A DNA stretch of 64,000 nt from Umezawaea endophytica (lineage in GTDB: Bacteria > Actinomycetota > Actinomycetes > Mycobacteriales > Pseudonocardiaceae). The DNA is taken from the NCBI RefSeq assembly GCF_025061645.1, contig NZ_JANYMP010000023.1, forward strand, positions 62,001 to 126,000, written 5' to 3'. How positions within the stretch are numbered: position 1 is the first letter of the stretch; the number at the start of each line of letters is the position of its first letter. The translations under genes and the position numbers were made by a program. Positions 1,424-61,726 of the stretch are shown one piece after another. The notes beneath the pieces were generated by a model, which did not search any database, had not been told where the DNA came from, and saw nothing but the letters and a program-made list of their open reading frames with translations.

Positions 1424-2568
1424 GTCTCGACCAGCTCCGGGACGCCCACGTAGGTGCGGCGCAGCCGGGGGCGGTGCATGCCGGTGACGATCTCGTAGTC
1501 GATCGTGCCGGTCTTGTCCGCCCAGTCGCGCGCGGTGGGCTCGCCGCGGTCGCCGGGGCCGAAGAGGACGACCTCGGCGCCCTCCCGCACGTCGAGGTCG
1601 CCGCAGTCGACCATGATCTGGTCCATGCAGACGCGGCCCACGACGGGGAGCAGCCTGCCCGCGACCAGTACCTCCATCCGCCCGGACAGGCTGCGCGGCA
1701 CGCCGTCCGCGTAGCCCGCCGTGACCAGCGCGATGGTCGTGTCCCGCGGGGTCGTCCAGGTGAGGCCGTACGACACCGACTCGCCTGCCGGGAGGCGCTT
1801 GGTGAGCGCCACGCCCGCGCGGAACGTCATCACCGGCTTCAGGTCCAGCGGCACGTGCACCGGGTTCAGCCCGTACGTCGCGATGCCGGTGCGGACGAGG
1901 TCGAAGTGCAGGTCCGGGCGGGTGATGAGGGCCGCGGAGTTCGCGAGGTGCCGCAGCGGTCGCAGGCCGGCGGCCAGCGCCTGCCGGTAGGCCAGGTCGA
2001 AGCGCTCAGCCTGGAGGCTGATCGACGGGTGGCCGATCTCGTCCGCGCACGCCAGGTGCGACCAGATGGCGACCACCTGGACGTCCGGGGTGTCGGCGGC
2101 CTCCGCCACCAGCGCGGGCCAGTCCGCGGGCTGGCAGCCGTTGCGGCTCAGCCCGGTGTCGATCTTGAGGTGGATCCGGGCCCGTCCGCCGACGGCGCGC
2201 GCGGCCTCGGCGACGGTGCGGAGCATCCGGGGCGAGGCCACCGAGATGTCCACGTCGGCCGCCACGCCCGCGGCGAAGTCCTCGCCGGGCAGGTCCAACC
2301 AGGACAGCACGCGAGCGGTGATGCCCGCCTCGCGCAGGACCAGCGCCTCGGCCAGCGAGCAGGCGCCCAGCCACGTCGCGCCCGCCGTGAGGGCGGCACG
2401 GGCCATGTCGACGGCGCCGTGGCCGTAGCCGTCGGCCTTGACCACGGCCATGGTCGCGGCGCCGGTGCGATCGGCCAGACCGGCCAGCACGGCGACGTTG
2501 CGGCGGAACGCGGCGAGGTCGATCACGAGCTCGGCGCGGGGGGTGGAGGCAGCCATGAGGCCAATCAT
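1420..2568 (-). CDS. alr: Alanine racemase
   Basis: Alr is a PLP enzyme that interconverts L- and D-alanine for peptidoglycan. The N-terminal barrel carries the PLP lysine in VVKADGYGHG (Lys44), and the C-terminal part has the catalytic tyrosine in AGYADGVPR (Tyr286). At 382 aa it has the usual family length. ATG 2568 overlaps the nnr stop as ATGA (2565-2568); a second ATG at 2556 gives the more typical N-terminus and cannot be excluded. It lies in the glmS-nnr-alr-hydrolase-tsaE operon, linking cell-wall precursor supply with repair and translation functions. Confidence 0.97.
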   Translation of the reverse strand: MIGLMAASTPRAELVIDLAAFRRNVAVLAGLADRTGAATMAVVKADGYGHGAVDMARAALTAGATWLGACSLAEALVLREAGITARVLSWLDLPGEDFAAGVAADVDISVASPRMLRTVAEAARAVGGRARIHLKIDTGLSRNGCQPADWPALVAEAADTPDVQVVAIWSHLACADEIGHPSISLQAERFDLAYRQALAAGLRPLRHLANSAALITRPDLHFDLVRTGIATYGLNPVHVPLDLKPVMTFRAGVALTKRLPAGESVSYGLTWTTPRDTTIALVTAGYADGVPRSLSGRMEVLVAGRLLPVVGRVCMDQIMVDCGDLDVREGAEVVLFGPGDRGEPTARDWADKTGTIDYEIVTGMHRPRLRRTYVGVPELVET

Positions 2569-3968
2569 GGTGTCACAGCCCGCACGGAACGAATCGCGTC
2601 CGGGATGGCGGCCATCAGCGACGACGCCGGGATCGGGGCGCCGTCGGCGGCCAGCTCGCCCGCCAGCGCGTGCACGTGCGCCGCGCAGGCCGCCGCCAGC
2701 AGCGGGTAGACGCCCGCCGCCAGCAGCGAGCCGATCATCCCGGACAGCACGTCACCGGAGCCCGCCGTGGCGGGCCAGGCCGACCGCGACCGGTTCACGG
2801 CGACCGCGCCGCCGGGGTCGGCGACGATCGTGGTGTTGCCCTTGAGCAGCAGCACGGCGTTGAAGCGCTCGGCGGCCCGCTTCGCGGCGGCCACCCGGTC
2901 GGTGCCGACCTCCTCCCCCATCAGCCGCGCGTACTCGCGGTCGTGCGGGGTGAGGACGACGGTGGTGTCCGGGTCGCGGGCGTCCCACAGGTCCGGGTTG
3001 TTGGCGAACATCGTGATGGCGTCGGCGTCCGCGCAGACCGGCACGCCCGCGTCCAGCACGTAGCGGAGGACGTTCTCGGCGCTCAGACCGGTGCCGAGAC
3101 CAGGCCCGACGGACCACGCCTGGACGCGGCCCGCGTCGGTGATGGAGCCCGTGCAGATCGACTCGGGCCAGCGGGCCCGAACGGCGTCGGCCGCCTGGCC
3201 CGCGTAGCGGACCATCCCGGACGTGGCCAGCACCGACGCCCCGGTGGAGAGCACGGCGGCGCCGGGGTAGGTGGCCGACCCGGCCGCGATGCCCGTGACG
3301 CCCTGGCTGTACTTGTCGTCGCCGACTCCGGGGACGGGCCAGGCGAACGCCACGTCGGCGTCCTCCAGCTCCATCAGGTCCGGGCCGGGCAGCTCGGGCT
3401 GGAGACCGATGTCGACCAGCCGCACGTCGCCGCAGTCGGCCAGGGCGTGCACGGGTTTGCGGCAGCCGAACGTGACGGTGGTGTGCGCCTCGACGAACGG
3501 GCCGCCGGTGACACCCGTGTCGGGGTCCACGCCGCTGGGCAGGTCCACGGCGAGGACGGGCGCGGTGACCTTCGCGACGTGCGCGGCGGCGGCGGGCCGG
3601 AGCGGGCCGCTGGCGGACAGGCCGACGACGCCGTCGACGACCAGGTCGACCTCGGGCAGCTCGGACGCGACCCGGCCACCCGCCCTGCGGAACGCGGCCA
3701 AGCCCGCCGGGTGCGCGCGGTCGGGGTCGAGCAGGACGGCGGTCACGGCCACGCCCCGGCGGCGGAGGAAGTACCCGGCCCAGAGCGCGTCACCACCGTT
3801 GTTGCCCGCCCCGACCAGCAGGCCCACCCGCCTGCGCCCGCCGAGCAGCTCCAGCGCGACCGTGGCCACCCCGAAGGAGGCGCGCCGCATGAGCGCGCCC
3901 TCCGGGGTGCGGGCCAGCAGCCGGTCCTCGGCCGCCTTGACGTGTTCGGTGCTCCAGAAACCGCGCAT
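2565..3968 (-). CDS. nnr: Bifunctional NAD(P)H-hydrate epimerase / ADP-dependent NAD(P)H-hydrate dehydratase
   Basis: Nnr repairs hydrated NADH and NADPH. The N-terminal YjeF_N epimerase domain (about 1-210) has the glycine-rich stretch GAGNNGGDALWAG near residues 53-65. The C-terminal ribokinase-like dehydratase domain shows GPGLGTGLS, LTPHDREYARLMG, KGNTT and the late GSGDVLSGM motif. The length, 467 aa, fits the fused bacterial form. Its ATG at 3968 lies 19 nt downstream of the glmS stop, and its own stop overlaps alr. Confidence 0.95.
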   Translation of the reverse strand: MRGFWSTEHVKAAEDRLLARTPEGALMRRASFGVATVALELLGGRRRVGLLVGAGNNGGDALWAGYFLRRRGVAVTAVLLDPDRAHPAGLAAFRRAGGRVASELPEVDLVVDGVVGLSASGPLRPAAAAHVAKVTAPVLAVDLPSGVDPDTGVTGGPFVEAHTTVTFGCRKPVHALADCGDVRLVDIGLQPELPGPDLMELEDADVAFAWPVPGVGDDKYSQGVTGIAAGSATYPGAAVLSTGASVLATSGMVRYAGQAADAVRARWPESICTGSITDAGRVQAWSVGPGLGTGLSAENVLRYVLDAGVPVCADADAITMFANNPDLWDARDPDTTVVLTPHDREYARLMGEEVGTDRVAAAKRAAERFNAVLLLKGNTTIVADPGGAVAVNRSRSAWPATAGSGDVLSGMIGSLLAAGVYPLLAAACAAHVHALAGELAADGAPIPASSLMAAIPDAIRSVRAVTP

Positions 3969-3987: not shown

Positions 3988-5850
3988 CTACTCGACCGTG
4001 ACGGACTTGGCGAGGTTGCGGGGCTTGTCGACGTCGTAGCCGCGGCTGCGGGCGATCTCGGCGGCGAGGACCTGCAACGGCACCGTCGAGATGAGCGGCT
4101 GGAGCAGCGTCGGCACCGCCGGGATCTCGATGAGGTGGTCGGCGAACGGCCGGACCGTCTCGTCGCCCTCCTCGGCGATCACGATCGTGCGGGCGCCGCG
4201 GGCCTGGATCTCGCTGATGTTCGACACCATCTTCGAGTGCAGCACCGCGCGGCCCTTCGGCGACGGCATGACGACGACGACCGGCAGGCCCTCCTCGATC
4301 AGCGCGATCGGACCGTGCTTCAGCTCACCGGCGGCGAAGCCCTCGGCGTGCATGTACGCCAGTTCCTTGAGCTTCAGCGCGCCTTCGAGCGCCACCGGGT
4401 AGCCGACGTGGCGGCCGAGGAACAGGACCGCCTTCGAGTCGGCCAGCTCGCGGCCGAGCGCGCGGACCTGCTCGGTCGTGCCGAGCACCTTCGCCACGGC
4501 GTCCGGCATGGCCTCCAGCTCGCGGAACTCGCGGGCGACCTCGTCCGGGTACTTGGTGCCGCGGGCCTGCGCCAGCGCCAGGCCGACCAGGTAGTTCGCC
4601 GCGATCTGGGCGAGGAACGCCTTGGTGGAGGCGACGCCGATCTCCGGGCCCGCGTGGGTGTAGAGGACGGCGTCGGACTCGCGCGGGATCTGGGCGCCGT
4701 TGGTGTTGCACACGGCCAGCACGCGGGCCTTCTGCTCGCGGGCGTGCCGCACGGCCTCCAGGGTGTCCGCCGTCTCACCGGACTGCGAGACGGCGACGAC
4801 GAGCGTGTCGCGGTCGAGCACCGGGTCGCGGTAGCGGAACTCGCTGGCCAGCTCGACCTCGACGGGCAGGCGCGTCCAGTGCTCGATGGCGTACTTCGCG
4901 ACCAGGCCGGAGTGGTACGCCGAGCCGCAGGCCACGACGAACACCTTGTCGACGTCGCGCAGGTCCTGGTCGGACAGCCGCTGCTCGTCCAGGATGATCC
5001 GGCCGCCGTCGAAGTGCCCGCGCAGCGTGTTCGCCAGCGCCTCCGGCTGCTCCTCGATCTCCTTGAGCATGAAGTAGTCGTGGCCGCCCTTCTCGGCGGC
5101 CGACAGGTCCCAGTCCACGGTGAACGGCTTCGCGGTGGCGGGCTCGCCGTGGAAGTCGGTGACCTCGTAGCCCCCGGCGGTGATCACGACGATCTGGTCC
5201 TGGCCCAGTTCCACGGCCTGGCGGGTGTGCTCGATGAACGCCGACACGTCCGAGGCGACGAAGTGCTCGCCCTCGCCGACGCCGACCACCAGCGGGGAGG
5301 AACGGCGGGCCGCCACGACCTGGTCCGGCACGTCGGCGTGCGTCACGACCAGCGTGAACGCGCCTTCCAGGCGGCGCACCACGGCGCGGACGCTCGCGGT
5401 CAGGTCACCGGCGGTCTCGCCGTCGGCGTACGCCCGCGCGACGAGGTGGGCGGCGGTCTCGGAGTCGGTGTCGCTGGTCATCTCGACGCCGAAGCCCTCG
5501 AGCTCCGTGCGCAGCGCGATGAAGTTCTCGATGATGCCGTTGTGGACGACCGCCACCCGACCGGTCGAGTCCCGGTGGGGGTGCGAGTTCCGGTCGACGG
5601 GCGCGCCGTGCGTCGCCCACCGGGTGTGGCCCATGCCCGCCGTGCCGCCGAAGGACTCGCGCCCGACCACGTCGAGTTGGGCCTCCAGGTTGGCCAGGCG
5701 GCCCGCTTTGCGTTCGACTGTCAGACCGCCCTCGCCGTCCAGGACGGCGACGCCGGCGGAGTCGTACCCCCGGTACTCCATCCGCCTCAGTCCGTCGAGC
5801 ACGACGTCGAGCGCCGACCGGTGACCCACGTATCCCACGATTCCGCACAC
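3988..5850 (-). CDS. glmS: Glutamine--fructose-6-phosphate aminotransferase (isomerizing)
   Basis: GlmS makes glucosamine-6-phosphate from fructose-6-phosphate and glutamine, the first step to UDP-GlcNAc. The chain begins MCGIVGYVG, so Cys2 becomes the N-terminal nucleophile of the class-II glutamine amidotransferase domain (about 1-220). Two SIS sugar-isomerase domains follow (about 290-440 and 460-600), and the protein ends in the typical KSVTVE. At 620 aa it is full length. It heads the minus-strand operon and is divergent from the hydrolase at 5995, so its promoter lies in 5851-5994. GlmM, the next enzyme of the pathway, is encoded at 11727-13061. Confidence 0.98.
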   Translation of the reverse strand: MCGIVGYVGHRSALDVVLDGLRRMEYRGYDSAGVAVLDGEGGLTVERKAGRLANLEAQLDVVGRESFGGTAGMGHTRWATHGAPVDRNSHPHRDSTGRVAVVHNGIIENFIALRTELEGFGVEMTSDTDSETAAHLVARAYADGETAGDLTASVRAVVRRLEGAFTLVVTHADVPDQVVAARRSSPLVVGVGEGEHFVASDVSAFIEHTRQAVELGQDQIVVITAGGYEVTDFHGEPATAKPFTVDWDLSAAEKGGHDYFMLKEIEEQPEALANTLRGHFDGGRIILDEQRLSDQDLRDVDKVFVVACGSAYHSGLVAKYAIEHWTRLPVEVELASEFRYRDPVLDRDTLVVAVSQSGETADTLEAVRHAREQKARVLAVCNTNGAQIPRESDAVLYTHAGPEIGVASTKAFLAQIAANYLVGLALAQARGTKYPDEVAREFRELEAMPDAVAKVLGTTEQVRALGRELADSKAVLFLGRHVGYPVALEGALKLKELAYMHAEGFAAGELKHGPIALIEEGLPVVVVMPSPKGRAVLHSKMVSNISEIQARGARTIVIAEEGDETVRPFADHLIEIPAVPTLLQPLISTVPLQVLAAEIARSRGYDVDKPRNLAKSVTVE

Positions 5851-39656: not shown

Positions 39657-39685
39657 ATAGTACGCAGTTCAGCCCTGTTGCCCAA
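39657..39685 (-). promoter_or_regulatory. Promoter of the infA-rpmJ-rpsM-K-D-rpoA-rplQ-truA operon
   Basis: On the minus strand TTGGGC, a 17-nt spacer and TACTAT form a good sigma-70-type promoter. It overlaps the 3' end of the DUF1707 gene and leaves a 5' leader of about 150 nt before infA. Confidence 0.65.
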
Positions 39686-40175
39686 ATCGGGTCATCCGAC
39701 CCGCCAGGATGAGCGCTCCCCAGGGCCCCACGACCCAGATCCACCACGGGTAGGCCCACTCCAGGGTCGTGACGCTGACCAGTGCCCAGATGACGAAATT
39801 GATCATGCTGGCCGCGACCCAGGCCCGGAAGAGGAAGCGCGCGGCCTTGTTCGACTGGCGGACTTCCGGGAGGTACGTGGCGTGCTGGTAGGTGGGCGGC
39901 TGGTAGGCCGGTGGGTGGTAGGTCTGGTGCTGGTAGACCTGCTGCTCAGGACGGTGCGGAGACCTGGAGGAGGACTCGTCGTCAGGTGGCAGGTCGGCGA
40001 TGAGGGCGGAGAGGTCCGCATACGTTTGCGCCGACCACGCGAGCTGAACCCGATGGTCGAACTCGGCCAGGTCGAGACGCCCTTCGGCCTGTGCGCGCGT
40101 CAACAACTCCACGATCGCTTCACGATCGTTGTCAGCGGCCCTCATGGTCGGCGTGTCGTCGCTCACGTCGTCCAT
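39669..40175 (-). CDS. DUF1707 protein with two membrane helices
   Basis: This 168-aa protein has an N-terminal DUF1707 domain (about 10-64: [40 protein letters not shown]). A Tyr/Gln/Pro-rich linker with repeated TYQ/PPTYQ units follows (about 75-105), and a C-terminal two-helix membrane domain (about 115-160) ends it. DUF1707 proteins are common in actinobacteria and their role is unclear. It sits between the secY-adk-map and infA operons, and palindromic element A lies about 215 bp upstream. Confidence 0.88.
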
Positions 40176-40389
40176 GGTGGCTTGGTTGAGGGCTGGGGTA
40201 CATGGGGCTAGCCCCCGTGCGTGTGGGGAGGGCGGGTGAGGGTTCGGGGTTGGGGGTGGTTGGGTACGGATCTTGGTGTCGTGGGTCGAGTGGCTGCGGG
40301 AACGGTGGGTGCGGCTGGCAGCGTGGTCGGGGGCCTGTGGCTTCGGCTTCCGGCGGGGTCGGGTGCCGTACCGAAGTACCAGCGAGGAT

Positions 40390-40508
40390 GTGGCCGATTT
40401 GACTTGGGGCCCCTAGATTTGCCCCTTCGTCGGACAATAAAGGGCAGAAGGTGAAGCTGCCGTCCGACGCAAGTTTAAGGGGCAAATCCCCCAAGTAAAA
40501 TCGGCCAC
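40390..40508 (+). repeat. Palindromic element, copy A (119 bp)
   Basis: This is a near-perfect long hairpin. Outer stem GTGGCCGATT/AATCGGCCAC, then ACTTGGGG/CCCCAAGT, then ATTTGCCCCTT/AAGGGGCAAAT, then CGTCGGAC/GTCCGACG and an apical GGCAG/CTGCC. Bulges are at fixed places: CCCCTAG on the left and CAAGTTT on the right. It matches copy B at 60440 in about 109 of 119 positions and shares its skeleton with copy C. Confidence 0.9.
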
Positions 40509-40578
40509 GCTGCGTAGGCGGCGTCCCGTTTTTGAGCATTAAAGTCTAGAACCAAAGGACGGAACGCGGGCGCATTGC

Positions 40579-40693
40579 GTGTTCGATTTTACTTGGGGTT
40601 TTTGGCGCTAAACTCAGTCGGGCGGCAAGCTCTCCACCTGCCGTTTTGGCCCGACTAGCGCCAAAAAGAGGGGCCCCAAGTCAAATCGAACAC
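40579..40693 (-). repeat. Palindromic element, copy C (115 bp, inverted)
   Basis: Read on the minus strand it begins GTGTTCGATTTGACTTGGGG and ends AAATCGAACAC. It keeps the invariant GATTTGACTTGGGGCCCCT, AGTTTA and CCCCAAGTAAAATCG of copies A and B. Its middle stem is different in sequence (CTTTTTGGCGCTA with TAGCGCCAAAAA) yet fully paired. It lies about 155 bp after the map stop codon. Confidence 0.88.
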
Positions 40694-40848
40694 ACCCACC
40701 GCACCCCCGCGAGGGCCAACCCCACCCCCAACAACCCGCCCTGCCCGCCCACCGCACCAACCGAGCCCAAGCCACCCGAGCCCCGAACCAAAGACCCAAC
40801 GACAAAGGGCCCCACCCGCAGGTGAGGCCCTCAACCGTCAACCAACCC

Positions 40849-41622
40849 TCAATCCTCAAGCGCCGTGAGCACCCAAGGACCATCCTCCGTGATCGCGATG
40901 CTGTGCTCCCAGTGAGCCGCGCGCGACCCATCAGTGGTCACAACGGTCCACCCGTCATCCAACTCAGCCGTGTGCTCGGTCCCCAGCGTCAACATCGGCT
41001 CGATCGCGATAGCCATACCGGGCTTCAACCGAGGCCCTTTACCCGGCTTCCCGTAATTGGGCAGGAACGGCTCCATGTGCATCTTGGTCCCGATGCCATG
41101 ACCGCCGTACCCCTCCACGATCCCGTACTCGAACCCGTCCCGCTCCCCCGCCGCGATCGTCTCCGCTTCGATGGCGAACGAGATGTCCGACAGCTTCCCA
41201 CCGGCCACCGCCGCTTCGATGCCCGCGAGCATCGACGTGCGGGTCGCCTCCGACAGCAACAACTCGGCCGGGGTCACCTCGCCGATCGCGACGGTGAGGG
41301 CCGAGTCGCCGTGCCAGCCCTCGAGGATGGCGCCGCAGTCGATGGAGATGAGGTCGCCCTCCTTCAGCACCTGGGTGCGGCTGGGGATGCCGTGGACGAC
41401 CTGTTCGTTGACCGAGGCGCAGATGCTGGCCGGGAAGCCGTTGTAGCCCTTGAAGGACGGGATGGCGCCCGCTTCACGGATGTTCTGCTCTGCCAGCTCG
41501 TCCAGTTCGTGGGTGCTGATGCCCGCCTTGGCGTGCGAGGACACCAGGGCGAGCGTGCGGGCCACCACGAGGCCTGCGGCGCGCATGGCTTCCAGTTCGC
41601 CGCGCGACTTGATCTCGATCAT
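40849..41622 (-). CDS. map: Type I methionine aminopeptidase
   Basis: Map removes the initiator methionine from new proteins. From ATG 41622 it is 257 aa ([20 protein letters not shown]) with the metal ligands of the pita-bread fold: [18 protein letters not shown], and the Glu residues in AIEPML and [14 protein letters not shown] at 41679 overlaps the adk stop as GTGA and would add 19 residues; that start is possible because the genes are coupled. Map is the last gene of secY-adk-map. Confidence 0.96.
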
Positions 41623-58796: not shown

Positions 58797-59774
58797 CTAC
58801 GAGGGGACGGCCGCCACCCGGTTCGCCCGCGACCTCGTGACGACCACCACAGCGATGCCCGTGAGCAGCAGCACCAGGCCCGGCAGAGCTTCCGGCCGCG
58901 GGACCTGACCGAGCCACAGCCACGCGATCAGTGCCGCGCCGGGGACCTCGAGCAGGATCAGCAGGCTGACCGTGCTCGCGGACACCTTGTGCAGCGCGTA
59001 GCTGAACATCGAGTGGCCGAGGAGCTGCGCGCCGACGGCGAGGCCCGCGATGGCGAGCCAGGTGGTGGCGTCGAAGCCGACGAGCGGGACGCGGAACACC
59101 AGGCAGCCCGCCAGGAGCAGCGCGGCGCAGACCGAGTAGCAGACGAGCGTGTAGGTAGTCGTGGTCACCGCGGCGGTGCGGGCGCGTTCGCCGAAGGCGG
59201 TGTAGACGGCGGCGCAGGCACCGCCCGCGAGGGCCAGGAGGTCACCCGCCAGAGCTGGGCCGCCGACGGTGAGGTCCGCGCCGGTGGCGATGACCACCCC
59301 GGCGACCGCGAGGACGGTGCCCAGCCAGGTCGTGATGGGGACCCGGTGGCCCTGGAGGCGGGCGATGAGGGCCTGCCAGATGGGTTGGGTGGCCACCAGC
59401 GCGGTGGCGGTGGCGACGCTCGTGAGCTGGATGCTGGGCATCCAGGTGGCGAAGTGGGCGGCCAGGGCTATGCCCGCCAGGACGCAGTGGAGGCCTTCGC
59501 GTTTGCGGGTGGTGGTGAGGGAGCGGAGTTCGGTGGTGCGGGTGGGGCTGGTGAGGGTGAAAGGGGTTAGGACGGCTACGGCGAGGGTGTTGCGCCAGAA
59601 GGCCAGGGCCAGGGCGGGGGCGGCGGCGAAGGCGATCAAGGGGCCGGAGGAGGAGACGGCCAGGAGGGCGATGGTGATGGCTGCTGTGGTGAGGGGGGTT
59701 GGGGGGTGGGGGCGGGGTGGCACGTGGGCCATCTTTGCTCGTGGGTGGGGGGTGGGTGGGGTGAGGTTGGCCAT
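58797..59774 (-). CDS. EamA-family (DMT superfamily) exporter
   Basis: This 325-aa protein shows ten membrane helices in two EamA repeats (about 28-170 and 178-320). [20 protein letters not shown] lies in the first, and [20 protein letters not shown] with LIAWLWLGQ in the second, as in drug/metabolite exporters. The substrate is unknown. ATG 59774 is used; ATG 59732 would shorten a Pro-rich lead. The 5' third is unusually rich in A/C on the coding strand, as part of a G/T-skewed region continuing to 61550. Confidence 0.88.
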
Positions 59775-60281
59775 GGGGTAACGGCTGGGTGAGGGGCTGG
59801 GTGGGGGTGGCGGGCTTGTGGCGGGATGGGATTTGGGGGCGGGTTGAGCGCGGTGCGTGTAGTTCGCGTTGTCGCGGCGGCTGTAGGTGGTGTGTGGCTC
59901 GGCGTGGTGGTGTGGGCGGCTGTTGTTGCTTCGCTGTTGGGTGGCGTCAGGTTCATCGGGCCGAAGTCGTCCGCGCGGACCACGGGTTCCGGCTTGGGCG
60001 TGTGGGTCGTAGAGGTGGCGTTTCAGTCGGCTGGGCAGTCGGGTTGGTTGGTCGGTCAGTTCGGTAGGTCAGTCCCGTAGGTCTGGTCGGTCGAGGCAGG
60101 CTGCGGGCTGGCCGGTCGGGCCGGTCGGGCCGGTCGGGTCGGGCTGGTCGGTCGAGCAGGTCGAGTCGGGTCGGCCCAGTCGATCAGTCGGCCGGTCGGG
60201 TCGGTCAGCCGAGCCGGTTGATCAGTCGGGTTGGCTGGTCGGCCGGCCAGTTGCCCGGTCGGGCCGGTCGGTGGTCGGTTT

Positions 60282-60304
60282 TTGTCGGACCTTGGTCGTA
60301 GCGT
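60282..60304 (+). promoter_or_regulatory. RecA-NDp/PafBC-like promoter motif, copy 1
   Basis: TTGTCGG, 10 nt, then TAGCGT has the layout of the actinobacterial RecA-NDp promoter (TTGTCRG-N10-TAGnGT), used in LexA-independent DNA-damage induction through PafBC. No gene follows directly; palindromic element B starts 135 bp downstream. Confidence 0.5.
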
Positions 60305-60346
60305 GTGTATCGGGGGGTCCTCACGGTCGGGGGACCTCTGGTTTGT
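60283..60346 (+). repeat. 64-nt repeat, copy 1
   Basis: It starts TGTCGGACC and ends TCTGGTTTGT, matching 60756-60819 at about 55 of 64 positions without gaps. It includes the promoter motif and a downstream GGTCC/GGACC pairing. Confidence 0.8.
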
Positions 60347-60439
60347 GGTGGTCCTGGGGTTCGCGGTGGTGAGGCGAATTCGAGGTGGGTGGGCGGCTGG
60401 CGGTTTGGGTGGGGGCACGGGCAGCGGGTTCCAGCGTGG

Positions 60440-60558
60440 GTGGCCGGTTTGACTTGGGGCCCCTAGATTTGCCCCTTCGTCGGACCAAAACGGCGGGGAG
60501 GTGAAGCCGCCGTCCGACGCAAGTTTAAGGGGCAAATCCCCCAAGTAAAACCGGCCAC
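60440..60558 (+). repeat. Palindromic element, copy B (119 bp)
   Basis: This is the same hairpin as copy A with ten differences. Outer-stem A-T is replaced by G-C in both arms (GCCGGTT with AACCGGC), and the apical stem GGCAG/CTGCC becomes CGGCGG/CCGCCG. The bulges CCCCTAG and CAAGTTT are unchanged. It is oriented as copy A and preceded by G/T-rich sequence. Confidence 0.9.
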
Positions 60559-60754
60559 GGTTGCGTATGGCCAGGTCAAGTGGGGTGCTCCTGCTGATTA
60601 CTGGCATGGGTTGGTTGGTGGTGATCCCCAGGTTTGTTGCGAGGCTTTGGCAAGTTGGGCGCGTGGTGTGCGGCTTTGCCCGGCAGGTCGGTGGCTGTCC
60701 GTGGTTCTGGATATGTGGTGCTGAATTTTGTGTGGCGGTTGTGTGTTTCGAAAA

Positions 60755-60777
60755 ATGTCGGACCCCCGTCGTAGCGT
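60755..60777 (+). promoter_or_regulatory. RecA-NDp/PafBC-like promoter motif, copy 2
   Basis: ATGTCGG, 10 nt, then TAGCGT lies 55-70 nt before the possible starts of the APH-fold gene. It would make that gene DNA-damage inducible if the motif is functional. Confidence 0.55.
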
Positions 60778-60819
60778 GTGTGTCGGGGGGTCCTCACTTC
60801 TGGGGGACCTCCGGTTTGT
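60756..60819 (+). repeat. 64-nt repeat, copy 2
   Basis: This is the second copy of the 60283-60346 repeat. It covers promoter copy 2 and the expected 5' leader of the APH-fold gene. Confidence 0.8.
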
Positions 60820-60844
60820 CTTGGTTGGGTGATTGACTGGGGTG

Positions 60845-61726
60845 GTGACCTCAGATCTTGTTGCCGGTATGGCCGCGCTTGTGCCTGGTGGGGTGGCGCC
60901 GGTGGTGTTGGCTGTGCGTGGGGCTGTTGTGGTTGTGCGGGTTGGGGATGTTGTGCTCAAGGCGCATGAGCCTGGGGCTGGTGTTGTTGAGCTGTCTGCT
61001 CGGTTGCGGTTGGCCGGGGATTTGCGGTTGCGGGAACTGGTGTTGCCGCCGTTGTCGGTGTCTCCCTCGGTGGTTGAGGGGCGGGTTGTGACCGTTTGGC
61101 CGTTGGGGGTGCCTGTGCCTGAGCGGGATCCGGTTTCTGCGCCGCTTGAGGAAGCCGGGCGGTTGTTGGCGGCGTTGCACCGGTTTGGGCCTGCGGATTT
61201 TGGTGGGGTTGGGCCGGTGTCCGGGGCGCCTCAGCGGATGGTGCGTGCGGTTGACGAGTTGCGTCGTGCTGGGCTTGGTAGGCGGGCGGACGTGGTGTTG
61301 CGGGCGTTTGGGACCTTGCCCTTGGTGGAGGCGCCTGCGCGGGTGGTGGTTTGTCATGGGGACTGGCATCTCGGGCAGATGGTTTTGGCCGGGGGGTGGC
61401 GGTTGATCGATGTTGACGACCTGGGGTTCGGTGATCCTGCTTGGGACTTGGCGCGGCCTGCCGCGCTGTACGCGGCGGGGGTGCTGGATCCGGAGACTTG
61501 GGGGCGGTTCCTCGACTCGTACGTGGCCGCGGGTGGGGTGGCTGTTGACGCTCGGGATCCGTGGGTGGCGTTGGACGTGCCCGCGCGGGCGTTGGTGATC
61601 CAGATGGCGGCGCGTGCGCTGGTGGCTGCGCAGCGCGACGAAAAGGTGCTGGACGAAGCGCAGGAAGCGCTCCTGGAGGCGTGCGATCGGATCGTCGCGG
61701 CACATCCACACATGGCTCGCGGCTAA
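60845..61726 (+). CDS. APH-fold (aminoglycoside phosphotransferase-like) protein
   Basis: This 293-aa protein has the kinase-like catalytic loop VCHGDWHLGQMVL (about 170-182) and metal loop LIDVDDLGFGDPAWDLAR (about 188-205) of the APH/choline kinase superfamily. The N-lobe is short, with VVVRVGDVVLKAHEPG as the likely ATP-binding strand and lysine. The substrate is unknown; resistance should not be assumed. GTG 60845, GTG 60842 and TTG 60833 are all possible starts. Codon use is richer in G and T at third positions than in its neighbours. The upstream promoter motif suggests DNA-damage control. Confidence 0.85.
   Translation: MTSDLVAGMAALVPGGVAPVVLAVRGAVVVVRVGDVVLKAHEPGAGVVELSARLRLAGDLRLRELVLPPLSVSPSVVEGRVVTVWPLGVPVPERDPVSAPLEEAGRLLAALHRFGPADFGGVGPVSGAPQRMVRAVDELRRAGLGRRADVVLRAFGTLPLVEAPARVVVCHGDWHLGQMVLAGGWRLIDVDDLGFGDPAWDLARPAALYAAGVLDPETWGRFLDSYVAAGGVAVDARDPWVALDVPARALVIQMAARALVAAQRDEKVLDEAQEALLEACDRIVAAHPHMARG

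What the first reader, a model, noticed from the sequence alone, without database searches (positions are those of the whole stretch)
40390..40693. Family of 115-119 bp near-palindromic elements with compensatory stem changes (copies at 40390-40508, 40579-40693 inverted, 60440-60558)
Three intergenic copies share one architecture: a paired outer arm, the invariant GATTTGACTTGGGGCCCCT on the left and CCCCAAGTAAAATC on the right, an unpaired AGTTTA on the right of the middle stem, and an apical hairpin. Between A and B, an outer-stem A-T pair becomes G-C by changes in both arms, and the apical stem changes in both arms. In C the whole middle stem is replaced, yet still pairs over 12 bases. Fixed unpaired sequence plus covarying stems means the folded form is kept, as RNA or as single-stranded DNA. 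It could be a non-autonomous mobile palindrome moved by a ssDNA transposase (REP/RAYT-like), a structured RNA, or a conserved terminator. I do not recognise it.
Basis: seen in the sequence. Interest (0 to 1): 0.88.

Follow-up and report, generated by a model that had tools for sequence, protein, structure and literature searches.

The report
Hairpin repeats with strand-biased mutation halos
A soil bacterium's genome carries about 85 copies of a 115-119 base DNA hairpin between its genes, and the DNA around the copies, neighbouring genes included, has been rewritten towards G and T on one particular strand, as if the hairpin marks where that strand is repeatedly exposed or its partner remade.

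Summary
The three palindromes are real and belong to a family of 85 copies in this 11-Mb genome, a congener of Umezawaea tangerina. Both other Umezawaea carry the family, some other Pseudonocardiaceae more sparsely. By my gene calls no copy lies in a gene. Stems change wholesale yet stay paired, almost without one-sided intermediates and with no excess of G.T over A.C, so pairing looks kept at DNA level. No Rfam family matches; Y1 transposases are absent from all three Umezawaea, against REP/RAYT.

The flanks gave something larger. The element's + strand is G/T-enriched over roughly -0.7/-1 to +1.5/+2 kb, also at synonymous sites of genes in either orientation. Where U. tangerina has a copy and this genome's orthologous place lacks it, substitutions within 700 bp on the right are C>G 259 against G>C 33; beyond 1.5 kb they are near-symmetric. 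A second, unrelated hairpin family shows the same halo, and at two loci the skew's sign follows the resident elements' orientation.

Best reading: a mobile REP/ERIC-like DNA hairpin at which the opposite strand is repeatedly removed and resynthesised. Enzyme and biochemistry are unknown; some loci are exceptions, and in other genera the halo is weak or only local.

The parts
40390..40508 (+). Copy A, 119-bp near-palindrome (GATTTGCCCCTT middle stem)
40579..40693 (-). Copy B, 115-bp near-palindrome with replaced middle stem (TTTTTGGCGCTA); counterparts at the same place and on the same strand as map in G001 and G002
60440..60558 (+). Copy C, 119-bp near-palindrome, outer A-T pair changed to G-C
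59400..61600 (+). G/T-rich tract around copy C (200-bp keto skew .34-.51, .14 in the bin holding the element), including the end of the EamA-type gene 58797-59732 and a 2-kb intergenic region
39800..40389 (+). G/T-rich stretch on the 5' side of copy A (+.26, +.09, +.41 per 200 bp), reaching into the DUF1707 gene 39669-40175; does not reach |z|>5 in the scan
40694..41200 (-). G/T-rich (minus strand) tract on the 5' side of copy B, reaching into the 3' half of map (M24 peptidase gene)

Best explanation
A high-copy, non-coding mobile DNA palindrome of REP/ERIC/MITE-like kind. Recognition: the constant unpaired and near-constant parts (TTGAC/GTAAA, GGGG with the left CCCCT loop, the right AGTTTA-like loop, the apical AAAA-GGGCAGG) are read by an unknown cellular or mobile enzyme on the extruded hairpin; the stem letters are free, as long as they pair. 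Action: the strand opposite the element's + strand is nicked or removed at the hairpin and resynthesised across about 0.7-1 kb on the 5' side and 1.5-2 kb on the 3' side, leaving the + strand single-stranded or used again and again as template. Damage to that strand, or errors of the refilling polymerase, turn C (and A) into G (and T) on the + strand over evolutionary time. Arm-to-arm template switching during such synthesis keeps the stems paired. SHOWN: family, copy number, intergenic placement (by my gene calls), paired hypervariable stems, the strand-directional substitution halo, and at most tested Umezawaea loci its dependence on element presence. INFERRED: nick or gap, enzyme, mobility as the purpose.
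For: Halo. 4-fold sites averaged over both gene strands: G000 GC skew .38-.47 at -250 to -500, about 0 beyond -1250.11-.26 from +750 to +1750; G001, 24 copies: +.40 to +.59 within 600 bp right, fading to .06 at 2.1 kb; G002, 24 copies: +.66/+.41 left, +.27 right. Random strand flips reaching the observed mean: 0 of 20000 in G000 (82 copies) and G001, 1 in G002 (53 with the 11 G002 copies). Control: 119 intergenic regions without the element, class means -.03 to +.01, per-region sd .11-.16. In the 64-kb window the only |z|>5 spots are beside copies B and C; the ribosomal-protein operon (L14, S19 confirmed) shows none. Paired test with G000 orthologues: C>G 259 vs G>C 33, C>T 22 vs 1 within 700 bp right; C>G 204 vs 200 at -3000 to -1500 (binomial tests); the model finds no family-1 copy in 11 of the 12 G000 loci. 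Sign follows orientation: DUF1707, L116/L293. A second hairpin family (77 copies in G001, 45 in G002): 15 of 15 held copies positive on both sides (12 were the search's first loci, 3 had been met in skewed spots). DNA-level pairing: 1009 of 1066 stem cells Watson-Crick, 6 G.T, 9 A.C, 42 other; 785 of 792 in family 2. Turnover: 11 of 46 G001/G002 copies have a flanking gene that also lies in a G000 element locus; one site is 509 bp with the element against about 57 and 48 bp without.
Against: No enzyme, nick or transcript was seen. In other genera the halo is weak: Allokutzneria copies are positive within 200 bp (27 of 29 and 23 of 25) but 4-fold sites are irregular, negative at -600 to -1200; Labedaea 13 of 15 positive locally, nothing at 4-fold sites; Actinophytocola 0 of 2. 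Of 11 informative paired loci, 2 (L123, L126) show no skew in either species and 1 (L125/L298) shows it in both although neither the patterns nor the model find an element in the G000 locus; two G000 loci have negative skew (-.30, -.31) that I did not explain. Of 6 G002 orthologous loci, 2 (L309, L310) are skewed +.32 and +.28 without a model match. Left of the element only C>G is lopsided (155 vs 67); C>T is 5 vs 4, A>G 4 vs 6, A>T 0 vs 5. Skew is absent at +250 to +500 in G000 4-fold sites (-.02) and near 0 at +300 to +800 between genes, and turns negative at -900 to -1500 left of G001 copies. Diverged family-2 copies in held G000 loci show skew in their own direction in only 6 of 17; 14 cases lie within 400 bp of an oppositely oriented family-1 copy. 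The halo could come from transcription or R-loops instead.
Confidence: 0.42

Rival explanations
1. Transcription/R-loop model: each locus is transcribed in the element's + direction; the G-rich non-template strand is displaced in an R-loop, damaged and mutated, and the hairpin helps to hold it open (switch-region-like).
For: G/T-rich displaced strand, feedback from G-richness, and a 3' decay of about 2 kb would all fit. Copies avoid divergent promoters (4 of 85 between divergent genes); between two + genes they lie a median 162 bp after the first and 651 bp before the next.
Against: The halo ignores gene orientation and reaches 0.7-1 kb upstream into genes of either strand, which would need an antisense start at a similar distance at every site. 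The ribosomal-protein operon of the window, presumably its most transcribed part, has no skew.
Confidence: 0.27
2. Target preference: elements insert into, or survive in, DNA that is already skewed for another reason.
For: Many copies are near-identical, so presumably young, yet 96-99% of the left 50-bp bins within 100 bp are G-rich. Three orthologous loci without a detected copy are skewed (L298 in G000; L309, L310 in G002).
Against: Orthologous G000 places lack the skew in 8 of the 9 loci that are skewed in G001, none of these 8 holding a family-1 copy by the model, and the sign differs with the resident elements' orientation at two loci.
Confidence: 0.1
3. Cis-acting structured RNA or bidirectional terminator/3' end stabiliser, with skew from selection on transcripts.
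For: Fixed loops, paired stems, gene 3' ends favoured.
Against: No preference for G.U over A.C in family-1 stems (family 2 has 5 against 1), no Rfam match, no T-run, both orientations used, and skew inside codons of genes on both strands.
Confidence: 0.12
4. REP/REPIN-type repeat moved in trans by a Y1 (RAYT/IS200-like) transposase.
For: Imperfect hairpins, high copy, intergenic, five close convergent pairs.
Against: PF01797 has no match in G000, G001, G002 (at least 60 copies each), G028, G031 or G035; no GTAG tag at the base of the hairpin (read directly).
Confidence: 0.06

Closest known systems
ERIC/IRU (127-bp enterobacterial imperfect palindromes) and other small MITE-like repeats
   Same: Size, imperfect palindrome, intergenic, tens of copies, no ORF (ERIC recalled; the 127-bp RU-1 repeats seen in the start of an abstract, PMC2759123)
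   Different: Stems hypervariable but paired; kilobase strand-biased halo in Umezawaea; found in Pseudonocardiaceae plus single MAGs of two other phyla
REP/REPIN with RAYT (GTAG and CGTC superfamilies, PMC3733652: start of abstract, two passages)
   Same: Extragenic hairpins in high copy, some in convergent pairs; CGTC REPs also apparently lack a dedicated transposase according to that abstract
   Different: 115-119 bp rather than 20-40 bp; no GTAG tag; no Y1 transposase in the richest genomes; the word Actinobacteria does not occur in that paper's main text
Quasipalindrome correction / template-switch maintenance of hairpins (PMC8794818, title and start of abstract seen)
   Same: Explains paired changes without intermediates
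   Different: A mutational mechanism, not an element; by itself it does not give flanking skew
Immunoglobulin switch regions (recalled)
   Same: Kilobase G-rich displaced strand, C>G-type changes
   Different: Eukaryotic, AID-dependent; only an analogy

Membership tests
REP/REPIN (RAYT-mobilised) | Y1 (PF01797) RAYT transposase in the genome | tested here: not met
   0 matches in G000, G001, G002, G028, G031, G035; matches in 2 of 8 bearing genomes (G009, G029); control genomes ring in 5 of 14
REP/REPIN (RAYT-mobilised) | 20-40 bp hairpin with a 5' GTAG tag | tested here: not met
   115-119-bp elements, no GTAG at the stem base
TIR-type MITE | Terminal inverted repeats, clean insertion with target-site duplication | tested here: inconclusive
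   Inverted arms present; 10 G000 and 6 G002 orthologue pairs examined (3 gave no flank pair), the short ones too diverged to read borders; one small site (509 vs about 57 and 48 bp) shows a gain of about 450 bp including G/T-rich flanks
TIR-type MITE | Autonomous relative with the same ends and a transposase | not tested
   No systematic search was made; the two exact left arms outside the pattern are a truncated copy (L039) and a copy at a contig end (L040)
Known structured RNA (Rfam 15) | Covariance-model match | tested here: not met
   No match at gathering score in the window; with permissive thresholds on nine other loci only far-sub-threshold microRNA-type matches fall on elements
RNA-level structural constraint | G.U wobble tolerated more than A.C | tested here: not met
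   G.T 6, A.C 9 of 1066 cells; family 2: 5 and 1 of 792, too few to judge
Intrinsic terminator | Hairpin followed by a T-run | tested here: not met
   Read directly: the right arm is followed by GGCCACG-type sequence; no terminator scan was run
Same element family in a Bacillota MAG | TTGAC/GTAAA, GGGG/CCCC, left CCCCT loop, paired outer and inner stems | tested here: met
   Two copies; R1 26 bits each (E 1e-4 in 37.7 kb, preselected by pattern); 11 of 13 scored stem cells paired plus a perfect 11-bp inner stem in the fold of one copy; MAG contamination not excluded
Same element family in a Dehalococcoidia MAG | as above | tested here: inconclusive
   One copy, R1 20.9 bits (E 0.0023), 8 of 13 scored stem cells Watson-Crick

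The most novel reading that the evidence does not exclude
A bacterial DNA-hairpin system that directs strand-specific mutation of kilobases of surrounding chromosome, genes included: the hairpin sets the strand and position, an unidentified enzyme opens or replaces the other strand, and error-prone refilling drives C>G (keto-ward) change. Several unrelated hairpin families feed the same machinery, so genomes that hold it carry many local hypermutation zones whose polarity is programmed by the repeat.
Probability: 0.3. Interest if true: 0.94.

Novelty: new variant of a known kind. Interest (0 to 1): 0.83.

Why it matters
Extragenic palindromes are among the oldest unexplained features of bacterial genomes. 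Here a high-copy palindrome leaves a polarised mutational footprint that is readable in sequence alone, over both gene orientations, and that is mostly absent where the element is absent. That makes the question 'what is done to DNA at such hairpins?' directly testable, gives a marker for finding the enzyme, suggests that repeats can set local mutation direction for neighbouring genes, and cautions that covariation in palindromic repeats need not mean RNA structure.

Tried and rejected
Rfam at two thresholds: nothing credible on the element. Y1 transposase: absent where copies are most numerous. IS110 link: the Dehalococcoidia copy lies about 38 bp beyond an IS110 transposase ORF (PF01548, PF02371), but among the held loci tblastn found only one weak match (26% identity, L186). 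Replication direction: by eye in the single-contig genome G002, from the listed places (30 family-1 copies, list truncated, plus the map copy; 45 family-2 copies): family 1 runs 13 plus/6 minus in the left half and 5/7 in the right, family 2 8/12 and 18/7, together 21/18 and 23/14, so no common link is visible; the origin was not located and no test was run. Simple C deamination as the only cause: rejected because C>G far exceeds C>T, with the caveat that selection for GC at 4-fold sites also favours C>G over C>T (far from elements C>G also outnumbers C>T). Clean insertion borders and target duplications: not readable. Age of copies: not attempted. The NucS listing was looked up for a possible source of the asymmetry and is not used as evidence; the R-loop listing likewise.

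Rows dropped: one search left out copies whose two strands both fit the finder (22 of 33 in G002, 6 of 26 in G001, 8 of 8 in G009, 2 of 85 in G000); redid G001 and G002 with covariance-model orientation (24 copies each). The paired test used 12 G001 loci out of the 15 whose fragments were sent; L128 was not used, L124 and L134 were run apart because G000 has a copy there; L133 gave no site; L297 (partner of L123) holds a family-1 copy some kilobases away and may be a paralogue; L293 turned out to hold a family-2 copy. One search did not catch G009 and lumps five unlisted loci as unassigned.

Full report
OBSERVATION. The copies at 40390 (+) and 60440 (+) share the middle stem; the inverted copy at 40579-40693 has a replaced one. 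The window is G000:C23:62001-126000 of an 11.02-Mb, 65-contig assembly.

FAMILY. A two-arm pattern finds 72 full copies, control 0. The left arm with up to 2 mismatches finds 86 sites, controls 0 and 1, one site not an element. One search extracted 85 distinct copies; 2 lack a right end (one truncated, one at a contig end). A home-made codon-usage gene finder places 0 of 85 inside genes; neighbours relative to the element are -- 29, +- 26, ++ 21, -+ 4, incomplete 5. Among 49 distinct sequences, 25 consensus pairs: 8 have changes on both sides, one cell shows a one-sided change that keeps the pair, and 20 of 1225 cells are broken or gapped, 15 of them in two pairs where subfamilies align differently. 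Whole middle stems differ between subfamilies, while TTTGACTTGGGG, the left CCCC(T) loop, the right AGTTTA-like loop and CCCCAAGT are nearly fixed.

RELATIVES. A pattern search of 396 genomes drawn across the phylum hit only G000. In other genera the outer and middle stems are quite different in sequence yet paired. Two copies in a Bacillota MAG and, less surely, one in a Dehalococcoidia MAG fit the same plan.

DNA OR RNA. Over the stem haplotypes caught, 1009 of 1066 cells are Watson-Crick, 6 G.T, 9 A.C, 42 other. RNA constraint would favour G.U over A.C. Arm-to-arm template switching (PMC8794818, start of abstract only) can keep palindromes paired without selection, so pairing alone does not prove that the fold is selected; the persistence of fixed looped parts suggests that those are recognised.

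THE HALO. The element's + strand is G/T-rich whatever way the genes run. In intergenic DNA GC/TA skews are +.44/+.58 in the first 50 bp left; 119 control regions without the element average near 0. At 4-fold sites the skew decays with distance for genes of both strands, with a dip at about +250 to +800 on the right in G000 and a negative stretch at -900 to -1500 in G001. In G000, 70 of 82 scored copies are positive; in G001 and G002 21 of 24 each; strand flips almost never reach the observed means. In the window the only strongly skewed spots (|z|>5) lie beside copies B and C.

ELEMENT OR PLACE? Copy B has counterparts at the same place and on the same strand as map in G001 and G002; the loci of G023 and eleven other genera show no R1 match. 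Skew in the 3' half of map is +.35, +.17 and +.31 (G000, G001, G002) against +.02 in G023. In the DUF1707 gene the coding-strand skew is +.33 and +.28 in G001 and G002 (B only), -.19 in G023, and -.04 in G000, where the inverted copy A is also present. For 12 G001 loci, orthologous G000 loci were located, fetched and compared at codons with identical first two bases: 0-700 bp right, skew +.60 against -.06, C>G 259 vs G>C 33, C>T 22 vs 1, A>G 10 vs 3; 700-1500 bp, C>G 279 vs 92; -700-0, C>G 155 vs 67, other classes small and even or against (A>T 0 vs 5); -1500 to -700, 113 vs 137; -3000 to -1500, 204 vs 200; a slight excess remains at +1500-3000, 301 vs 234 (tests). Eight of 11 informative loci shift strongly, two show no skew in either species, one is skewed in both. 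R1 finds a family-1 copy in 1 of the 12 G000 loci, L297, some kilobases from the query gene. At L116 the G000 orthologue holds a family-2 hairpin in the opposite orientation, and its skew has the opposite sign. Six G002 orthologues are all skewed the same way (+.09 to +.47); R1 or the family-2 pattern finds an element in four, none in L309 and L310.

SECOND FAMILY. Skewed spots in G001 and G002 without the first family contain another hairpin, GATTGTCTCAATGCC-arm-TTGTCAAG..CTTGACAA-arm-GGCAGGAGGGCGC: 77 copies in G001, 45 in G002, none by the exact pattern in G000 and seven genomes of other genera. Its arms take 50 forms in 81 distinct cores and pair in 785 of 792 cells. All 15 held copies are positive on both sides. 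Diverged relatives do occur in G000, 17 in held loci, and only 6 of 17 show skew in their own direction; 14 pairings within 400 bp of a family-1 copy are all oppositely oriented, 11 of them 110-135 bp to its left. In such composites the first family seems to set the sign. A third palindrome, 118 bp, sits in a skewed spot of G009 (L186).

LIMITS OF THE HALO. In Allokutzneria and Labedaea most copies are positive within 200 bp (27 of 29, 23 of 25, 13 of 15), but 4-fold sites are irregular or flat, and Actinophytocola shows 0 of 2. So the strong halo is so far a property of Umezawaea, perhaps of an enzyme or of the age of the copies there.

TURNOVER. 11 of 46 G001/G002 copies have a flanking gene whose best match (>60% identity) lies in a G000 element locus (no formal expectation was computed); two more shared places appeared (L124, L134). 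One site is 509 bp with a copy in G001 against about 57 and 48 bp in G000 and G002, so about 450 bp including G/T-rich flanks were gained there. Genes beside copies are also more diverged at 4-fold sites (map .32, DUF1707 .42, against .05-.20 for close neighbours), though constraint differs between genes.

MECHANISM. Same-sign skew on both sides speaks against a resected double-strand break, which would give opposite signs (inference). Independence from gene direction and the unskewed ribosomal operon speak against ordinary transcription. A break or gap in the minus strand at the hairpin, extending further to the 3' side, with the + strand exposed or reused as template, fits best; an R-loop is the main rival. 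The enzyme is unknown.

LITERATURE. Searches (listings only, plus passages of PMC3733652) showed no description of this family or of a repeat-anchored strand halo; the library lacks most subscription journals.

Noticed in passing
window 60283-60324 and 60756-60797: A 42-bp repeat, 90% identical, resembling TGTCGGAC..GTCGTAGCGTGTGTRTCGGGGGGTCCTCAC, lies on both sides of copy C.
   Followed up: no
G001 L176:472-526 and 5726-5782; G002 L181:7719-7759; G000 L293 and others: Second hairpin family with hypervariable paired arms, 77 and 45 copies in two congeners, with the same kind of strand halo.
   Followed up: partly
G000 L002, L004, L006, L007, L023, L041, L044, L049 (two), L052, L078: Composites: a diverged family-2 hairpin in opposite orientation 110-135 bp left of a family-1 copy, 11 cases.
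   Followed up: partly
L186:9798-9915 (G009): A third, unrelated 118-bp imperfect palindrome in the middle of a G/T-skewed stretch.
   Followed up: no
L283:1374-2781 (Dehalococcoidia MAG): An IS110 transposase ORF (PF01548, PF02371) ends about 38 bp before a family-1-like hairpin.
   Followed up: partly
L262:221-351, L287:1468-1598 (Bacillota MAG): Two longer hairpins (131 nt) with the same TTGAC/GTAAA, GGGG/CCCC and left CCCCT-loop plan in a different phylum.
   Followed up: partly
downstream of family-2 copies, e.g. L176 from about 5800: Tandem mini-hairpins of the type CATCGGGCTCCGCCCGAC follow the element.
   Followed up: no
L119, G/T-rich flank left of the element: Three tandem repeats of about 53 bp in the G/T-rich tract; in G028 flanks TTTTGGGC-type runs.
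   Followed up: no
G000 pairs on C8, C16, C18, C23, C38: Five close pairs of family-1 copies, all convergent (+ then -), of different subfamilies.
   Followed up: no
L309, L310 (G002) and L298 (G000): Loci orthologous to G001 element loci that are skewed although no element was found in them; undetected hairpins or lost copies are possible.
   Followed up: no
L042:2309-2393: Actino-pnp leader RNA (RF01688), 60.7 bits.
   Followed up: no
L040 at G000:C9 end; L039: One copy ends at a contig break and one has lost its right half.
   Followed up: no
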